DNA from: an uncultured Caldilineaceae bacterium
Lineage (GTDB): Bacteria; Chloroflexota; Anaerolineae; Caldilineales; Caldilineaceae
Assembly (NCBI GenBank): GCA_958295915.1
Contig: OY282381.1
Coordinates: 1,510,722 to 1,574,721, forward strand
Length of the DNA: 64,000 nt
Direction: 5' to 3'
This document shows positions 6,552-54,400 of this stretch, in pieces (within the stretch, counting starts at the first letter, position 1; each line of letters begins with the position of its first letter). The notes beneath the pieces are model-generated. The model was not told the DNA's origin. It saw only the letters and a program-made list of their open reading frames with translations, and made no database searches. A program made the position numbers and the translations under genes.

Positions 6552-7271
6552 GTGGCTACCAAACTCAGTACTGTTATCGCCGCCACTCCAGCAACCGATC
6601 TGGCGGTCGTGCAGGCGATGGCCGAACAGTTGGACAGTTACATTTTGCGCGGTGAGGTATACCGGACGATTGCTCTGCGCACACCCTTGCACGGCGAGGA
6701 ACGGATGCAGAGCGGCGGCGGAGATCTGCTGGCGCGCCTGCACAAACTGTCAGCGCAATCTGACGCTTTGTCCAGCGCGCAAAAGCAGGCGCTTGCGGAT
6801 GCCAAAGCGAAGATCGAGGAAACAACGGGCCGCCTCCGGGTTCCATACCAGGCGCTGCTGCTGCGCGAGGCAAAGGCCCGTCTGAACAGTTTGAAGTGGT
6901 TTCTCGACGATTGCCAGGAGAACCGCAGGGAGTGCCGGGTGCAGTATCCGTTTGAAATTCGCAACCGCCAGCGGGTTGCAGAGATAGGCAAAGCATTGGA
7001 TGCGGAAGGCATTGAATTGCGCGCCACTGTGGGGCGCGACCCTGTTGAATTGCGCGCCACTGTGGGGCGCGACCCTGCGGCGCGCTCAGCCCTCATTGCT
7101 CGACAGAGGCGCGTTGCCGCAGACGTGACGGCGCAGCTCACTGCCATCGACCAGCGTTTACGGGCATTGACAGGCGGCAGCGAGTTTGTCTGGGATGCGT
7201 CCGTGGCGCACATCTACCCGCGCAGTGAGTACTGGTATCTGTATGCGTTGCCGCTCGGGTCAGCTACCTGA
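6552..7271 (+). CDS. Hypothetical protein with a tandem family A insertion
   Basis: 239 residues, predicted cytoplasmic, helical and charged. No family is recognised. The GTG at 6552 is chosen because a perfect AAGGAGG lies at 6541-6547; the dtd stop is 17 bp upstream. Around residues 156-178 the protein reads ELRATVGRDP twice, 11 residues apart. This is the translation of two tandem family A palindromes and interrupts an otherwise continuous helical region (LDAEGI before, AARSALIARQRR after). The C terminus (WDASVAHIYPRSEYWYLYAL) looks folded and probably marks the conserved part. Confidence 0.7.
   Translation: MATKLSTVIAATPATDLAVVQAMAEQLDSYILRGEVYRTIALRTPLHGEERMQSGGGDLLARLHKLSAQSDALSSAQKQALADAKAKIEETTGRLRVPYQALLLREAKARLNSLKWFLDDCQENRRECRVQYPFEIRNRQRVAEIGKALDAEGIELRATVGRDPVELRATVGRDPAARSALIARQRRVAADVTAQLTAIDQRLRALTGGSEFVWDASVAHIYPRSEYWYLYALPLGSAT
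7017..7096 (+). repeat. Family A palindrome, two tandem in-frame copies
   Basis: Copies at 7017-7043 and 7050-7076, period 33 bp, each with arms CGCGCC and GGCGCG around ACTGTG. The second copy continues into the longer form ending near 7096 that is also seen at 22282 and 29257. Confidence 0.9.
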
Positions 7272-18490: not shown

Positions 18491-18546
18491 TTGCGCGCCA
18501 CTGTAGGGCGCGATAGGGTCGTATTGCGCGCCACTGTAGGGCGCGA
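18491..18546 (+). repeat. Family A palindrome, two tandem copies
   Basis: Copies at 18491-18513 and 18524-18546, 33 bp apart, with loop ACTGTA. They sit just upstream of the phosphatase TTG, in the hisH-phosphatase gap. Confidence 0.9.
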
Positions 18547-26044: not shown

Positions 26045-26115
26045 GATGTGATTCCTTCATCAAAGCTCGTTCACAGCGTCTGCGGGCGACACGTTTCGGC
26101 CGCGCTGTAAGGAAG

Positions 26116-26218
26116 GTGAGATGCGCCTCTGCTCGAGAGAGGCGCGAAAGGTGAGATGCGCCTCTTGCTCGAGAGAGGCGCGGCAGGTGAGATGCGCCTC
26201 TGCTCGAAAGAGGCGCGA
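26116..26218 (+). repeat. Family B array, three tandem copies
   Basis: Palindromes at 26123-26145, 26158-26181 and 26194-26216, period about 35 bp, separated by GGTGAGAT-type linkers. Found in the 247-bp gap between two lipoprotein genes; nothing else is seen there. Confidence 0.92.
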
Positions 26219-45014: not shown

Positions 45015-46781
45015 ATGCCCAGAAAAGAACAAACGGACAGCGAGAGCACGGAAAATCAGGTGCGTATGCGCGCCACTGTGGGGCGCGATGTCGTCGCTGA
45101 TACGGATCTGGCACTCAGCGATCGGTATCGGGACGAACCCGCGCCGCTCCTCCCGATTCTCCACGCCTTCCACAACCGGGACGGATACATCGGAGCGCAG
45201 GCGATTGAAGCCATCGGCCAGGAGTTGCGCATTCCGTTGGCAGATCTGTACGGAACGGTCACATTCTATCATCACTTTGCGCGCGAGGCCGGCGGCCTAC
45301 AGAGGCCGCGCGTCTGCACGGGGCCGATCTGCTGCCAGCGAGGCGCGCAGGAAATCGTGAAAAGCCTGGACGGCGCCGAGGAGATGCCCTGCGCCGGACG
45401 TTGCGATGACCCGGTGCCGCTCCTTATCGGCCACGAAACGTTTGTGGCGCGCGTGCCGCTGCAGACGCCGGAACGGCGCATCTCTTCGCCTCTGCCCATG
45501 CCAAATCCGGGTGGGCGAGAGGAATGTGTCTTCGCCTTCATCCGCGAGCAGGGTCGGGCCAGTCTGGACGGTTATCAGCGCACCGGCGGCTATGAGGCCT
45601 TGGTTAAAGCCGTGCAGGAGTTGACGCCGGATCAGGTGATCGAATTGCTGAAGGAGTCGAAGCTGGCGGGCCGGGGTGGAGCCGGCTTCCCCACGGGCAT
45701 GAAATGGCAGTTTGTGCGCGAGGCTGAGGGTGGGCCAAAGAGCGTCGTCTGCAATGCGGATGAAGGCGAGCCGGGCTGCTTCAAAGATCGGGCGCTGATG
45801 GACTACGACCCTTTCGCGGTGATCGAAGGGATGACGCTGGGGGCCTATGCGATGGGCGCTGAACGGGGCTTCCTCTACTTGCGCTATGAATACCCGGAAA
45901 CCTATGATCGACTGGCGACGGCCCTGCGCGCGGCGGAAGAGGCCGGACTCCTGGGAGAACATATCCTCGGCAGCGACTTCAGTTTTCGGCTGTATCTTCG
46001 CCGGGGCGCCGGCGCCTACATTTGCGGCGAAGAGACATCCCTGCTCAACAGCCTGGAGGGCAAGCATCCCTTCCCTCGCAATCGTCCGCCCTATCCCACC
46101 ACGCATGGTTTTGAGGATCTGCCTACCGCTGTCAATAATGTGGAAACGCTGTGCGCCGTGCCGCAGATTCTGCGTCGGGGGGCTGAATGGTATCAGGGCC
46201 TCGGTCTGAATGGACATGCGGGCACCAAAGTGATTAGTCTATCCGGGGATGCGCAACGGCCCGGCAACTACGAAGTGCCGTTCGGCCTGCCCTTGCGTAC
46301 GCTGCTCTACGATTGGGCCGGCGGCCCTCTGCCGGGGCGCTCATTTCAGGCGGTGACCATGGCCGGGCTGTCCGGCGGCTTTCTGGCCGGCGACGCGCTG
46401 GAGGCGATCACTCTCGATGAACCGAGCTTGCGGGCCGCGGGGTCGATGCTGGGCGCGGGCGGGGTGATGATTTTTGACGACAGCCGGGATATCGTGGATA
46501 CGGCCCGCCAGGCGATGGGGTTCTTCGCCCACGAAAGCTGTGGCAAATGCTTCCCCTGCCGTATCGGTACGCAGCGTTTGCTGGAGCGGCTCTCCGGCGG
46601 CGGCCCCACGGAGATCGATACCTGGACACAGGAGGTCCGCGACATCGGCGATGTGCTGCAACTGAGCGCCTGCGGATTGGGTGTGGCGGCCAGCTTTGTC
46701 AGCGAGAGTTTGCTCAGGAACTTTCCGGCGCAGGTAGCGGAATATATGAGTCGGGGCAACAAGACGCACAGGATCGGGTGA
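45015..46781 (+). CDS. NuoE-NuoF fusion: NADH-binding diaphorase subunit of formate dehydrogenase
   Basis: 588 residues. N-terminal NuoE/thioredoxin-like domain with [2Fe-2S] cysteines 101, 106, 126 and 130 (CTGPIC, CAGRC). The NuoF domain follows, with FMN/NAD loops (GRGGAGFPTGMKW, CNADEGEPGCFKDR, GAGAYICGEETSLLNSLEG) and a [4Fe-4S] site (ESCGKCFPCRIGT plus LSACGLG). This is the electron-exit module of soluble NAD-dependent formate dehydrogenases and bidirectional hydrogenases; the following genes point to formate. ATG 45015 or GTG 44988. Residues 18-25 (MRATVGRD) translate family A. Confidence 0.95.
   Translation: MPRKEQTDSESTENQVRMRATVGRDVVADTDLALSDRYRDEPAPLLPILHAFHNRDGYIGAQAIEAIGQELRIPLADLYGTVTFYHHFAREAGGLQRPRVCTGPICCQRGAQEIVKSLDGAEEMPCAGRCDDPVPLLIGHETFVARVPLQTPERRISSPLPMPNPGGREECVFAFIREQGRASLDGYQRTGGYEALVKAVQELTPDQVIELLKESKLAGRGGAGFPTGMKWQFVREAEGGPKSVVCNADEGEPGCFKDRALMDYDPFAVIEGMTLGAYAMGAERGFLYLRYEYPETYDRLATALRAAEEAGLLGEHILGSDFSFRLYLRRGAGAYICGEETSLLNSLEGKHPFPRNRPPYPTTHGFEDLPTAVNNVETLCAVPQILRRGAEWYQGLGLNGHAGTKVISLSGDAQRPGNYEVPFGLPLRTLLYDWAGGPLPGRSFQAVTMAGLSGGFLAGDALEAITLDEPSLRAAGSMLGAGGVMIFDDSRDIVDTARQAMGFFAHESCGKCFPCRIGTQRLLERLSGGGPTEIDTWTQEVRDIGDVLQLSACGLGVAASFVSESLLRNFPAQVAEYMSRGNKTHRIG
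45067..45089 (+). repeat. Family A palindrome at the NuoEF N terminus
   Basis: GCGCGCCACTGTGGGGCGCG-type, in-frame (TGCGCGCCACTGTGGGGCGC). Confidence 0.88.
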
Positions 46782-46883: not shown

Positions 46884-47594
46884 ATGCAGCCAATGAACGG
46901 TGTAGTGAACGGTGTAGATCGCTCTCCAATGCTGACTCTCGATGGTGAGCGGATTGCTTTCACGCCCGGCGAGACGGTCTACGAAGTCGCGACACGGGCC
47001 GGCAGATCTGTGCCCACGCTCTGTTACGACCCGCGGCTGCAGCCGTTCGGCAGTTGTCGGCTGTGTGTAGTGGAGGTGGCGGGGCAACAGGCGCCGGTCG
47101 CTGCCTGTACTACACACGCCACAGATGGAATGGAAGTGACGACCGCGTCGGCCAAAATCGAAGGTCTACGGCGTACACTGCTGGAGCTGGTGGCGTCCGA
47201 AAACCGAGAGGTGACGGTGGATGCCCTGCGGGGTCATGCCTCGCAGGAGCTTGCGACGCTTGTCGAGCGCTATACCGCTGACAGCGGGCGTTTTGTCGGC
47301 GCGCAGTCGGGCCGCAGCCAGCTGGACGACAGCAACCCGTTCATTCTGCGGGATTACGACCTGTGTATCTCCTGTTATCGCTGTGTGCGCGTCTGCGCCG
47401 AGCAGGAGGGCGACTACGCTATCAGCGTTGCCAACCGCGGCTTTGCCACGCAGATCACCGTCGAGTTCGGCGGTGATCTGCGGGACTCGGCTTGCACATT
47501 CTGCGGCCAATGTGTGCAGACCTGCCCCAGCGGCGCGCTCGCCGATAAAAAGGCGCTGCGGTTTGTAGAGCATAGCGCGCGCGGAGCGCCATAG
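46884..47594 (+). CDS. HoxU/NuoG-N-like iron-sulfur subunit of formate dehydrogenase
   Basis: 236 residues. [2Fe-2S] domain with Cys47, Cys58, Cys61 and Cys75 (CYDPRLQPFGSCRLC), then a segment equivalent to the NuoG His-Cys3 cluster, then two [4Fe-4S] motifs (CISCYRCVRVC and CTFCGQCVQTCPSG). The middle segment reads LRGHASQELATLVERY and has none of the expected cysteines, so one cluster seems to be absent. In many FdhA proteins this module is fused at the N terminus; here it is a separate gene, split from fdhA by the repeat array. Bridges FdhA to the NuoEF-like subunit. Confidence 0.92.
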   Translation: MQPMNGVVNGVDRSPMLTLDGERIAFTPGETVYEVATRAGRSVPTLCYDPRLQPFGSCRLCVVEVAGQQAPVAACTTHATDGMEVTTASAKIEGLRRTLLELVASENREVTVDALRGHASQELATLVERYTADSGRFVGAQSGRSQLDDSNPFILRDYDLCISCYRCVRVCAEQEGDYAISVANRGFATQITVEFGGDLRDSACTFCGQCVQTCPSGALADKKALRFVEHSARGAP

Positions 47595-47650
47595 CTCAGG
47601 ATTGGAATTCGGGACATCACACTGCCTTTTGTCGCAGCGGTGAAGATGTT

Positions 47651-47886
47651 TTGCGCGCTGTTGTGGAGCGCAACGATTTTTACGCGCTACTGTGGAGCGC
47701 AATGACTTTTGGCGCGCTACTGTGGAGCGCAATGACTTTGGCGCGCTACTGTGGAGCGCAATGACTTTGGCGCGCTACTGTGGAGCGCAATGACTTTGGC
47801 GCGCTACTGTGGAGCGCAATGACTTTGGCGCGCTACTGTGGAGCGCAATGACTTTGGCGCGCTACTGTGGAGCGCAATGACTAAGG
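47651..47886 (+). repeat. Eight-copy tandem array of a family A variant ahead of fdhA
   Basis: Copies begin at 47654, 47683, 47713, 47742, 47771, 47800, 47829 and 47858. The last six are in exact 29-bp register and almost identical. Each has arms GCGCT and AGCGC around ACTGTGG, then a CAATGACTTTGG linker with an ATG. There are no spacers, so it is not CRISPR. The last copy overlaps an in-frame ATG at 47877 that would extend FdhA by six residues. It fills the 300-bp gap between the two formate dehydrogenase genes. Confidence 0.97.
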
Positions 47887-47894
47887 ACATTCTG

Positions 47895-50006
47895 ATGAAC
47901 AAAACCGCTTCTTCCAGCGCTTTTTCCGAGCAGAGGCGCATTCAACATTTCAAAACAACCCGTACAATCTGTGGTTACTGCGGCGTCGGCTGCGCGCTGG
48001 ATCTGGTGACCCGGGACAATCGCATCATCGCCGTGCATCCGGCTTTCGATGGCCCGGCCAATGAAGGCGCGCTGTGTGTCAAAGGTCAGTTCGCATACGA
48101 TTACGTCCACCATGCGGACCGGCTGACCTATCCGCTGGTGCGGGGAGCTGATGGTCAGTTGCGGCGGGCTACCTGGGACGCGGCTCTGGAGCGGGCGGCA
48201 CAGGGTTTCCTGGATGTGATGCAAAAGCACGGACGCCACGCGGCCTATGGCGTCGCCTCTGGGCGCACCCCCAGCGAAGCCAACTATATGATGCAGAAGT
48301 TCATACGTGTGGGCTTCGGCACAAATTATATCGACAACTGTAGCCGTGCCTGACACGCTCCGACCGTCGCCGGTCTGGCGGCAACAATCGGACTTGGCGC
48401 TATGTCCAATCCACTGGCGGATATGGAAAAGCCGGATGTGATCTTCTGCATCGGCACGAATATGACCGAAGCTCACCCAGTCGCGGCCACCCGGCTGAAG
48501 AAGGCTCTCGCCCGGGGCGCCAAACTGATCGTGGCCGACCCCCGGCGTATTCGTCTGGCAGAAATGGCCGACCTGTATCTGCCGATCCGGGTCGGCAGCG
48601 ATACTGCATTGTTGCTGGGCATGGCCCACGTGATCGTACGGGAAGATCTCATCGATCGAGAGTTCATCGCTACCCGCACAGAAGGCTACGAGCGGCTGGT
48701 GGATCACCTGCAGGAGAAGACGCCGGAGTGGGCCGAGAGCATTAGCGGTGTGCCGGCGGCCGCTATTGAAAAGGCGGCCATCTTATACGGCTCTAGCGAC
48801 AAGGCCGCCATCTACTATACTCTGGGCATTACGGAACACATCTGCGGCGTAGAGAATGTTCAGAGCCTGTGCAATCTGGCGCTGCTCAGCGGCAATATCG
48901 GTCGCGAAGGCACCGGTATCAATCCGATGCGGGGTCAGAACAATATTCAAGGCGCTGGGGATAGCGGCGCCTTGCCCAACAATTACGTAGGCTTTCAGCC
49001 GGTGACAGAGCCGGCCAATCAGGCCAAATTCGAGAGGGCCTACGGGCGCAAAATCGATCTGGAAAAGGGCATTACAAAAGTAACCGCCTTGGAACAGTGC
49101 GGCGACACGATCCACGCCATGCTCATCGATGGCGAAAACACAGTCGTCTCCGATCCAGATCAGGAGCACTGCATCCACGCGCTGAAGAGCCTGGAGCATT
49201 TCGTGGTCATCGACATCTTCCTGACGGAGACGGCAGAGCTGGCGGATGTGGTGCTGCCGGCCACCTCCTGGGCTGAGACTGACGGTCATTTCACCAACAC
49301 GGAACGGCGTATCCAACGGGTGCGCAAGGCCGTCGAGCCGCCCGGCGAGGCTAAACCTGACTGGTGGATCATCGGCCAACTCGCCCAGCGGATGGGCATG
49401 GCAGGTTTCGACTACGATTCGCCGGTACCGATCTTCAACGAATTGTGCGAATTGTCGCCCATCTATTACGGCATCGACTGGGAACTGGCGGATAGCGGTC
49501 AGTATCACTGGCCGATCCCGTATCGGGGTCATCCGGGCACGCCCCGTCTGCACGAAAACGAGTTCATCAACGGTCGGGGCAAATTCAGCTTCACCGAATA
49601 CCGAGATCCGGCGGAAACCATCGATGATGAGTATCCGTTGTGGCTCACCACCGGGCGGCGGCTGGAAAGTTACCATACCCGCACGCAAACGGGACGCTCG
49701 GCGGGTCTCAACGAGCTGCTGCCGGAGGAGATGTTGGAAGTGCATCCGGCGGATGTAGCCCGGTTCGGCCTGCGCGATGGCGGCTGGGCCAAAGTCAGCA
49801 GTCGGCGGGGGGCAGTGGAGGTTCGGGTCAAGGCGACCAGGCGCTCTCCCCAGGGGACTGTCTTCGCCAGTTTCGCCTTTGCCAACGTGCCCATCAATGC
49901 GCTCACCGGCTCCGGCTACGATCCCATCACCCATACAGCCGAGCTGAAGGTCTGCCCTGTGCAGGTCGAACCGGTGGTGGAAGAGGCGCTGGTGGCCGCG
50001 GATTGA
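47895..50006 (+). CDS. fdhA: Formate dehydrogenase alpha subunit, selenoprotein (UGA = Sec153)
   Basis: Molybdo/tungsto-bis-MGD enzyme that oxidises formate to CO2. 703 residues when the in-frame TGA at 48351-48353 is read as selenocysteine. Upstream: [4Fe-4S] Cys26, Cys29, Cys33, Cys61 (CGYCGVGC, ALCVKGQ). The active-site segment is DNCSRA-U-HAPTVAGL, matching the family pattern of Sec/Cys followed by H-x-P-S/T-V-A-G. Downstream: IFCIGTNMTEAHPV, GMRGQNN-type NPMRGQNNIQGAGDSG, and a C-terminal cofactor domain. The frame is unbroken on both sides of the TGA. Start ATG 47895 has AAGGA 7 nt upstream; ATG 47877 lies in the repeat array. Confidence 0.93.
48351..48382 (+). promoter_or_regulatory. 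UGA selenocysteine codon and SECIS-like hairpin
   Basis: TGA at 48351-48353. Arms GTCGCC (48366-48371) and GGCGGC (48377-48382) pair over 6 bp (one G-U) around a GGTCT loop. The GGTCTG starts 18 nt after the UGA, exactly as I recall for E. coli fdhF, and it is the apical GU that SelB recognises in that system. selA, selB, selC and selD are not in the window. Confidence 0.85.
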
Positions 50007-51417: not shown

Positions 51418-54400
51418 ATGAAACGGTTTGCCCTTTTCGCGCTATTCCTGGCTATGAGCCTGACTGCCGGCTTCTATCTTTCCAGCGAACGGCTGGCGGC
51501 ATATGTCGATGAGGTCCTGCGGTCGGGCGAAAAGGATATATTGGACCAACAAGATGGCAGGGCCGAAGAGGCTCTTGAAGCGGTCGCGGGTTTTGTGCCC
51601 GGGCAGGTGATCATCCGCTTTAAGAGAGACGTGACTCGCGAGCAGATCTCCGATTTCTATGCGGAGTACGGACTCTCTGAGAAGGACAATCTGGACCACG
51701 ATCCCAATGATGCCGATCAGGGGATGCGATTGGCCGCGGCGCCGGTGGATGTGGACGAGAATCTCATTGAAGTTCTCGAAAGCGACCCCAGAGTGGTCTA
51801 TGCCGAGCCCAATTTCATTCTGCAGATCAGCTCTCCTGTCTGGGATCCTGTAAATCCTGATCGGTTGAATGCGCCTCTGTTCGAGAGAGGCGCGACGCCT
51901 AATGATCCGCTGTTCGATCAGCTTTGGAGACTGCACAATACCGGCCAGACTGGCGGTACTGCCGACGCCGATATCGATGCCCCGGAAGCCTGGGGTATCA
52001 ACACCGGCTCACGGGATGTGATTGTTGCGGTCATCGATACCGGCATAGATCCCAGCCACGAGGATTTGCAGGCCAATATGTGGACGAATCCGCAAGAATG
52101 TCCGCAGGGATTTGACAAATGCGAAGCAGACGGTGTGGACGACGACAACAACGGCTATGTGGATGATTTCTACGGCATCAACGCTATCAACGACAGTGGC
52201 GAGCTGATAGATGATTTCGGCCACGGCACCCATGTAGCCGGCATCATCGCTGCGGTGGGCGACAACGACACAGGCATTGTCGGCGTCAGTTGGAAGACCC
52301 GCATTGTCGGTTGCAAGTTCCTCAGCGCGTTCGGCTCCGGCACTACATCCAATGCGGTCAAGTGCTTCAATTACATCTACGATCTGCGCCACAAACAGAA
52401 ACAGAATATCCTGATCACGAACAGTAGTTGGGGCGGCGGCTCTCCTTCTCGTTCCTTAAAGGAGGCAATGGGCCGGGTTGATTCGCCCTTGCACATGTGC
52501 TCGGCCGGTAATGCCAACACCAATCGCATCGCCTATCCGGCAGGGTATGACCTGGACAATATCATCGCGGTAACGGCAACGGATCACGACGACCTGTACG
52601 CCGGCTTCGCCAATTGGGGCGAGGATTGGGTGGACTTAGCGGCTCCCGGGGTGAATATTCTCTCGACGGTCCCCACCGGTCGCTGCGCTATCTGTGATCC
52701 ATCCGGCTACCGGGCCATTGGCGGCACATCTATGTCTACGCCCCTAGTCGCTGGCGCTGCGGCGCTGGTCTGGTCGGAATTCGAGGGGCTGAACAATGCG
52801 CAGGTGAAGCAGCGCATCCTCTCAGGTATCGATCTACTGAAAAACCGCTTCAAGACGACCGTTACCAACGGTCGTCTGAATCTCTTTAATGTGATGGAGA
52901 AAGATTCGACACCGCCGGCGGCTGTGACTGACCTGTCTCCCACCGGTGTACTGTTGACGAAGATCATCCTTTCCTGGACAGCCACCGGCGATGACGGATT
53001 CAAGGGGATGGCCACGGCATACGATGCGCGCTACGCCACGGCGCCCATATCCGACGCTACATGGGAGCAGGCCACCCGCGTGGCGACGACGCCGGAGCCC
53101 GGTTCATCCGGTTCCAGAGAGACGCTGGAGGTGACGGGGCTTGCTCCGAACACAACCTATTATTTTGCGCTGCGGGCCGCCGACAATGTAGGCAACGTTT
53201 CCGACTTATCCAATATCGTCATCGCCCGTACCAGTGCGGGGACAATCGTCTTTGAAGACGATATGGAAAACGGCGCGGGCAAATGGAGCATCGATGATGC
53301 AAAGAACAACCTCTGGCATCTATCCAATCTGCGCTTCAACAGCCCGGAAACCGCCTGGCACTACGGTCAGGAGAAGGAACGCAACTACGACACGGGCGAG
53401 GCCAATGAGGGCATTATCACCTCGAGCGTCATTGACATCGCCGGCGCTGACGACGCGCTGCTCACGTTCTACGAATGGAGCGAAGTGCAGCGCAATCCGC
53501 GCTTTGACCGTACCCGCGTACAGGTATCCGGCGATGGACGCGAATGGACGACGGCATTTGAATCTCACGGCACAGAGGGGCTCTGGGAACGGCGGGAGGT
53601 CGATCTGACCCAATTCCTGGAAGAGACCAGCTCGATTCAGGTGCGTTTCTGGTTTGATACGGTAGATGAGACGTTCAACGACAACGAAGGTTGGTACATC
53701 GACGACGTGCAGGTGGTTACCGCCAAGCTGACGCTGCCTGGCGAGGAGGAGTTGGCGCCAAATCTGGTGGCGCAGCCGATCAACATTGGCTTCAATCCGG
53801 CCGAGCCGCATGCGGGCGAGCCGACAACTATCCACGGTACGATCATCAACAACGGCAACGCCGATGCCCGCGCAATCACAGTTCAGTTCGTGGATGTCAG
53901 CGATGAAGAGGCAGCAGTCCCGATTGGCGCGCCCCAGACGATCGCTGAGATTCCCGTCGGCGGCAGCGGCGTGGCCCAGGTTCAGTACGACACGGACCGC
54001 AAGGTCGGCAAAGGCGAAGATGGATTGCGCGCCACTGCAGAGCGCGCCATTCGGATGGTCATCGATCCCAACAACTTCATTCCAGAGCGGAATGAAGCGG
54101 ACAACCAGGCCACCCGCATTCTCACCATCAGCGCCGCGCCGGCGCCGAATCTATTCATCAGCTCGGACAATGTGGGCTTCGACCCGTCTTCGCCGCAACC
54201 CGGCGCGCAGGTGACGATCTATGCCACGGTTCTGAACATCGGAACAGCCGACGCCTCGAACGTCGTCGTTCAGTTTCTGGAAGACAAAGACAGACCGATT
54301 GCACCGAATCAGGTGATCGACAGCATCCCCGCAGGCAGTAGCGCTGTCGCCCAGGTAACTTTCGACTCCAGTTCCAGTATGGGCGATCCACGCATCAACA

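What the first reader, a model, noticed from the sequence alone, without database searches (positions are those of the whole stretch)
47651..47886. 29-bp hairpin array amplified directly in the fdhA leader
Eight hairpins, the last six near-identical, stand between the ferredoxin-subunit gene and fdhA. The period is not a multiple of 3, so the ATG carried in each copy falls in shifting frames. The last copy carries an extra in-frame start. Such an array could tune translation, terminate or stabilise mRNA, or vary by slippage in copy number, making fdhA expression phase-variable relative to the upstream genes. Nothing comparable is known to me for formate dehydrogenase.
Basis: partly seen in the sequence, partly recalled or inferred. 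Interest (0 to 1): 0.8.

Follow-up and report, generated by a model that had tools for sequence, protein, structure and literature searches.

The report
Hairpin repeat array ahead of fdhA
The eight tandem hairpins in front of this formate dehydrogenase gene are one insertion site of a short repetitive DNA element that has spread to hundreds of places in this one Caldilineaceae genome and multiplied in tandem at many of them, so it is a genome-wide parasite-like repeat rather than a special switch of the formate dehydrogenase gene.

Summary
The array is real: eight hairpin units, 47649-47882, period 29 (one step of 30), the last six hairpin cores identical. It is not specific to fdhA. The same 19-bp hairpin occurs at 215-244 exact sites in this genome on both strands, and at none (relaxed pattern 0-1) in 16 congeners or 395 relatives of the class. 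Conserved borders give a roughly 33-bp element, AAgGTTGTNTT-GCGCGCCACTGTRGGGCGC-GAC. A second family (H2) with 76 copies is also private to this species.

Congeners have an empty fdhA leader. In the same operon H1 and H2 copies sit in frame inside nuoEF and the fdhA N-terminus. More than 25 other arrays (2-9 copies, private linkers) exist. Nine paralogous leaders elsewhere carry 0 to 4 copies, including an empty site, so copy number is labile. Placement shows no leader preference.

Best reading: a lineage-specific burst of REP/RPE-like palindromic elements with local tandem amplification; fdhA is one case. The native Shine-Dalgarno and start lie intact behind the array; ATGA-overlapping mini-ORFs (MIRU-like) may help tolerate it. 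No active RAYT was found, only a species-restricted homologue lacking the catalytic His and Tyr. Strain variation and expression effects could not be tested.

The parts
47649..47882 (+). H1 tandem array, eight 29-bp units (one step of 30)
47653..47700 (+). two diverged first hairpins of the array (47653-47671, 47682-47700)
47712..47875 (+). six hairpins with identical 19-bp core GCGCGCTACTGTGGAGCGC, read as recent local amplification
47732..47880 (+). chain of 10-codon mini-ORFs MTLARYCGAQ*, each stop overlapping the next ATG (ATGA), GGAG 4 nt before each ATG; function inferred only
47877..47897 (+). last in-array ATG (47877), native Shine-Dalgarno AAGGA and native fdhA ATG (47895); the two ATGs are in frame and the native signals lie downstream of the repeats
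47914..47946 (-). H2 hairpin element (33 nt, inverted, degenerate) inserted in frame in the fdhA N-terminus, absent from congeners
45057..45086 (+). single H1 element (30 nt) inserted in frame in the nuoE/F-like gene of the same operon, absent from congeners
47592..47648 (+). stop codon of the ferredoxin-subunit gene and remaining spacer before the array
7012..7085 (+). H1 pair of period 33, same family
18493..18544 (+). H1 pair, same family
26113..26218 (+). H2 array, 3 copies of 35 bp
51871..51893 (+). H2 element inside the subtilase/CARDB gene, in frame, absent from congeners
54027..54045 (+). H1 element inside the subtilase/CARDB gene, 10 extra residues relative to a congener

Best explanation
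The array is one locus of a species-specific family of short mobile-like palindromic repeats (called H1 here, about 33 bp: AAgGTTGTNTT-hairpin-GAC). Shown: H1 is dispersed at more than 215 sites in this genome and absent from congeners; congener fdhA leaders are empty; H1 and a second family H2 are also inserted in frame in genes of the same operon; arrays elsewhere have private linkers, and paralogous leaders differ in copy number. Inferred: one H1 copy landed next to the fdhA Shine-Dalgarno sequence and was then amplified in place by replication slippage or unequal recombination, the last six units most recently. It persists because the native Shine-Dalgarno and start remain intact behind it, and possibly because ATGA-overlapping mini-ORFs hand ribosomes on to fdhA. 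How single copies move is unknown.
For: Genome census: 244 matches to the relaxed and 215 to the strict pattern, with 0 in the reversed-pattern control; 0-1 in 16 congeners and 0 in 395 class genomes. Conserved borders, with information falling to zero outside them. Empty fdhA leaders in congeners, 83-107 nt against 363 nt here. In-frame 30-nt H1 in nuoEF and 33-nt H2 in fdhA; further in-frame copies in the CARDB gene. More than 25 arrays of 2-9 copies with private linkers. Nine paralogous leaders with 0 to 4 copies, one being an empty site. About 17-fold intergenic enrichment with no leader preference.
Against: No active transposase linked to the repeats was found. No clear target-site duplication (at most an AA at one site). 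Only one genome of this species is held, so movement and copy-number change were never seen between strains. The gene calls behind searches come from a simple home-made caller on 464 kb chosen to be repeat-rich.
Confidence: 0.85

Rival explanations
1. A dedicated cis-regulatory array that tunes or phase-varies fdhA translation or mRNA stability through the number of hairpins.
For: Position directly before the Shine-Dalgarno; copy number is labile in comparable leaders.
Against: Same hairpin at hundreds of unrelated sites, no leader preference; absent from all congener fdhA leaders; folding of the whole leader is only modestly better than shuffles (z -1.55); start and Shine-Dalgarno lie downstream, so the reading frame does not switch.
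Confidence: 0.1
2. A MIRU-like translational relay: the units work as coupled minicistrons (ATGA overlaps) that deliver ribosomes to fdhA, and this is why the array is kept.
For: Five 10-codon mini-ORFs each ending at the next ATG, GGAG before each ATG, last ATG in frame with fdhA. A second group of leader arrays has TAATG overlaps and a last ATG in frame with its gene. MIRUs are described as inserting at start codons with -4 nt coupling (PMC12548453).
Against: Most other array consensus units lack an ATG, so it is not a family property; with period 29 an ATGA in the unit gives the overlap automatically.
Confidence: 0.2
3. Classical REP elements mobilised by a RAYT (TnpA-REP) enzyme.
For: Size, hairpin, intergenic enrichment; a RAYT homologue is present in this genome and in none of 16 congeners, closest solved structure TnpA-REP 4er8.
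Against: The homologue has Gln for both HUH histidines and Ser for the catalytic Tyr, no H1 or H2 copies in the 20 kb around it; no GTAG tag at the element end; no PF01797 hit.
Confidence: 0.15
4. Transcription terminator or mRNA-end element between the ferredoxin-subunit gene and fdhA.
For: The first two hairpins are followed by T-runs and score as terminator-like.
Against: Weak 5-bp stems; later copies have only TTTG; terminator-like hits in the region are not far above chance (9 against 4.9, sd 2.3).
Confidence: 0.05
5. Assembly artefact.
For: Tandem repeats are error-prone in assemblies, and read support could not be inspected.
Against: Units differ at the 5' end, and the family is present throughout the genome in many independent contexts.
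Confidence: 0.02

Closest known systems
REP / REPIN elements (GTAG- and CGTC-tagged palindromic repeats)
   Same: 20-40 bp palindromes in tens to hundreds of copies, mostly intergenic, some inside genes, some clustered (PMC3733652; PMC3116915)
   Different: no GTAG or CGTC tag at the end, stem with a bulge or mismatch, head-to-tail arrays with private linkers, no catalytically intact RAYT found
Rickettsia palindromic elements (RPE)
   Same: short palindromes inserted in frame inside unrelated protein-coding genes (PMC10969869)
   Different: about 33 bp instead of about 150 bp for the RPEs described in that review, mostly intergenic here, no sequence relation shown
Mycobacterial interspersed repetitive units (MIRU)
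   Same: interspersed units at start codons with a mini-ORF overlapping the next start (-4 nt) (PMC12548453); tandem occurrence of MIRUs is from general knowledge
   Different: shorter units, hairpin core, overlap present only in some arrays, also inserted inside genes
MITEs
   Same: small non-autonomous dispersed palindromes
   Different: no terminal inverted repeats of a known transposon and no clear target-site duplication

Membership tests
REP (GTAG superfamily) | GTAG tetranucleotide at one end of the hairpin | tested here: not met
   borders are AAgGTTGTNTT and GAC; no GTAG at either end
REP (GTAG superfamily) | associated functional RAYT (Y1 HUH) transposase | tested here: not met
   no PF01797 hit; one NF047646 homologue below cut-off with HUH and Tyr replaced and no flanking repeats
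REP (general) | 20-40 bp palindrome, high copy, mostly extragenic | tested here: met
CGTC-tagged REP / RPE-4 and RPE-6 | CGTC tag at one end, 8-9 bp stem starting with A/T pairs | tested here: not met
   CGTC (as GACG) in 26 of 97 last copies only; stem starts GCGC; features as in PMC3733652
Rickettsia palindromic element | in-frame insertion inside protein-coding genes | tested here: met
   nuoEF, fdhA and CARDB insertions against congeners
Rickettsia palindromic element | about 150 bp with a conserved encoded peptide | tested here: not met
   unit about 30-33 bp, read in several frames
MIRU | mini-ORF coupled by ATGA overlap at the gene start | tested here: inconclusive
   present between units at fdhA, TAATG form at one paralogous gene cluster; most other array units lack an ATG
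MITE | target-site duplication and TIRs shared with an autonomous element | tested here: inconclusive
   at most a 2-bp AA repeat at one empty-site comparison; no partner element found
Rfam families | match at gathering score | tested here: not met
   no match in the window
Phase-variable locus | copy number varies between cells or strains and changes expression | not testable with these tools
   one genome of the species held; in-genome paralogous leaders vary from 0 to 4 copies

The most novel reading that the evidence does not exclude
Several hairpin families that share the same 5' lead (GTTGNATT) but carry different stems were spread in one species by an unknown machinery other than an active RAYT, with a catalytically dead, species-restricted RAYT homologue acting as a repeat-binding protein, and the tandem leader arrays work as expandable ribosome relays.
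Probability: 0.12. Interest if true: 0.65.

Novelty: new member of a known kind. Interest (0 to 1): 0.42.

Why it matters
It shows a recent, apparently species-limited burst of tiny palindromic elements in an uncultured Chloroflexota lineage, with empty sites and in-frame gene insertions visible by comparison with congeners, and with paralogous leaders that catch array growth in progress. That makes the open question of how REP-like elements without an evident active transposase spread directly testable. For formate dehydrogenase itself it implies nothing special.

Tried and rejected
Replichore-oriented motif: the first pattern list looked strand-polarised, but that was how the list was cut; both strands are used throughout. 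Leader-specific placement: similar density by spacer class, 38 of 76 copies nearer the start. Simple 'no RAYT': PF01797 was negative but NCBIfam found a diverged homologue, so the claim was corrected to 'no catalytically intact RAYT found'. Viral carriage: three single IMG/VR matches, none with the element flanks, taken as chance. Rfam: nothing. Literature on Caldilineaceae or Chloroflexi palindromic repeats gave nothing specific.

Full report
Observation. The array exists as described: eight units at 47649-47882, period 29 with one step of 30, the last six hairpin cores identical. Seven of eight units carry an ATG, and the last one (47877) is in frame with the fdhA start at 47895.

It is dispersed. 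The core GCGC...ACTGTRG.GCGC matches 44 times in the window where 2.2 are expected (up to two mismatches, palindromic sites counted on both strands), and 244 times exactly in the 5.06-Mb genome, 114 + and 130 -, with zero matches to the reversed control. The stricter pattern gives 215 here and zero in 395 other genomes of the class; the relaxed one gives 0-1 in 16 congeners. Named relatives are Caldilineaceae MAGs; that several come from sponges or corals is my reading of the isolate names. The family is therefore private to this species among the genomes held.

Anatomy. First and last copies of about 100 sites define borders: weak A/G-rich lead, then AAgGTTGTNTT, the 19-bp hairpin, then GAC; information drops to near zero outside. 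A second family, GGTTGAAT-GCGCCTCTGCTCGAAAGAGGCGC-GA (H2), has 76 exact copies and is also absent from congeners. A third motif with the same GTTGAATT lead (TTGAATT-GGCGGGAATACCGAATTG) was seen. Single H1 and H2 units fold weakly to moderately (about -8 to -16 kcal/mol as RNA); the whole fdhA leader is only slightly better than shuffles (z -1.55).

Insertion. In congeners the distance from the ferredoxin-subunit stop to the conserved TICGYC codons is 83-107 nt; here it is 363 nt. The excess is mainly the array plus a 33-nt inverted H2 copy inside the fdhA reading frame (11 extra residues). In the same operon a 30-nt H1 copy adds 10 residues to the NuoE/F-like protein. The neighbouring subtilase/CARDB gene has an in-frame H2 and an in-frame H1 copy. 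The native Shine-Dalgarno (AAGGA) and start lie intact 3' of the array.

Amplification. More than 25 tandem arrays of 2 to 9.2 copies were found in 464 kb plus smaller loci, with periods of 29-37 and linkers private to each array; the fdhA array is the second longest seen. Private linkers imply that each array grew in place from its own founder. At 1.803-1.823 Mb nine paralogous genes have near-identical leaders with 4, 2, 3, about 1.5, about 2.5, 2, about 4, 2 and 0 hairpins; the empty one reads GGAGGGAAGGAAACAGAAAATG, an occupied one GGGAA-[AGTTGTTTT-hairpins-GAT]-AAGGAAACAGAAAATG. The first 200 nt of five of the genes are 93-98% identical without gaps; the others differ by indels that shift an ungapped comparison. 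Copy number is thus labile on the time scale of these duplications. Whether it varies between cells is not known.

Context. With a simple hexamer-based gene caller, H1 and H2 copies lie at 1.3-2.3 per kb in convergent, divergent and tandem spacers alike, and about 0.11 per kb in genes. There is no preference for leaders. These regions were chosen for being repeat-rich, so absolute densities are biased upward.

Mini-ORFs. The five ORFs starting at 47732, 47761, 47790, 47819 and 47848 each encode MTLARYCGAQ, whose stop overlaps the next ATG (ATGA), with GGAG 4 nt before each ATG. The paralogous leaders show TAATG overlaps and a last ATG in frame with the gene. MIRUs are reported to insert at start codons with such coupling (PMC12548453). 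Most other array units have no ATG, and with period 29 the overlap follows automatically from an ATGA in the unit, so this is a possible aid to tolerance, not a defining property.

Mobility. No PF01797 protein is found in this genus. NCBIfam NF047646 finds one RAYT-like protein between alaX and a gene I read as ileS, absent from 16 congeners, closest in the PDB to TnpA-REP 4er8. Aligned with relatives, both HUH histidines are Gln and the catalytic Tyr is Ser (the identity of the catalytic residues is from general knowledge of TnpA-REP), and no H1 or H2 copy lies within the 20 kb around it. It may be a relic or a domesticated DNA-binding protein; a causal link to the repeats is not shown, and a single co-occurrence is weak evidence.

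Conclusion. The finding is a correct sighting of one locus of a genome-wide family of REP/RPE-like palindromic elements with local tandem growth. The fdhA-specific and phase-variation readings are not supported; an incidental effect on fdhA expression is possible and untested.

Noticed in passing
L190:1444-2004 (genome C1 4636694-4637233): RAYT (TnpA-REP) homologue with both HUH histidines and the catalytic tyrosine replaced, intact ORF next to alaX, present in this species only among 17 congeneric genomes.
   Followed up: partly
48351-48353: In-frame TGA in fdhA at the expected selenocysteine position (NCSRA-U-HAPTVAGL); a tRNA-Sec gene above the Rfam cut-off is in the genome at 3059768-3059862, so ORF callers split fdhA wrongly here.
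   Followed up: partly
26113-26218, 15944, 42810, 51871: Second dispersed hairpin family H2 (GCGCCTCTGCTCGAAAGAGGCGC), 76 exact copies in the genome, none in congeners.
   Followed up: yes
L147:16955-17040 and other own-genome stretches: Third repeat motif TTGAATT-GGCGGGAATACCGAATTG-AGGTATGAGCGCC with the same 5' lead as H1 and H2.
   Followed up: no
L146/L147 (genome 1803.7-1822.5 kb): Tandem cluster of nine paralogous genes (one tested shows a sub-threshold PMT mannosyltransferase hit) with repeat arrays of different length in their leaders.
   Followed up: partly
L159-L178 (congeners G011, G024): Congeners carry a different abundant repeat, around GGGGGCGCAGCCCCGCAACGCCCCG, suggesting that repeat families turn over between species of the genus.
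   Followed up: no
L051, L066 and other congener fdhA leaders: Several congener fdhA leaders hold a short unrelated palindrome (AAGAGGCGTCGCGCCTCTACGCA) at about the same place.
   Followed up: no
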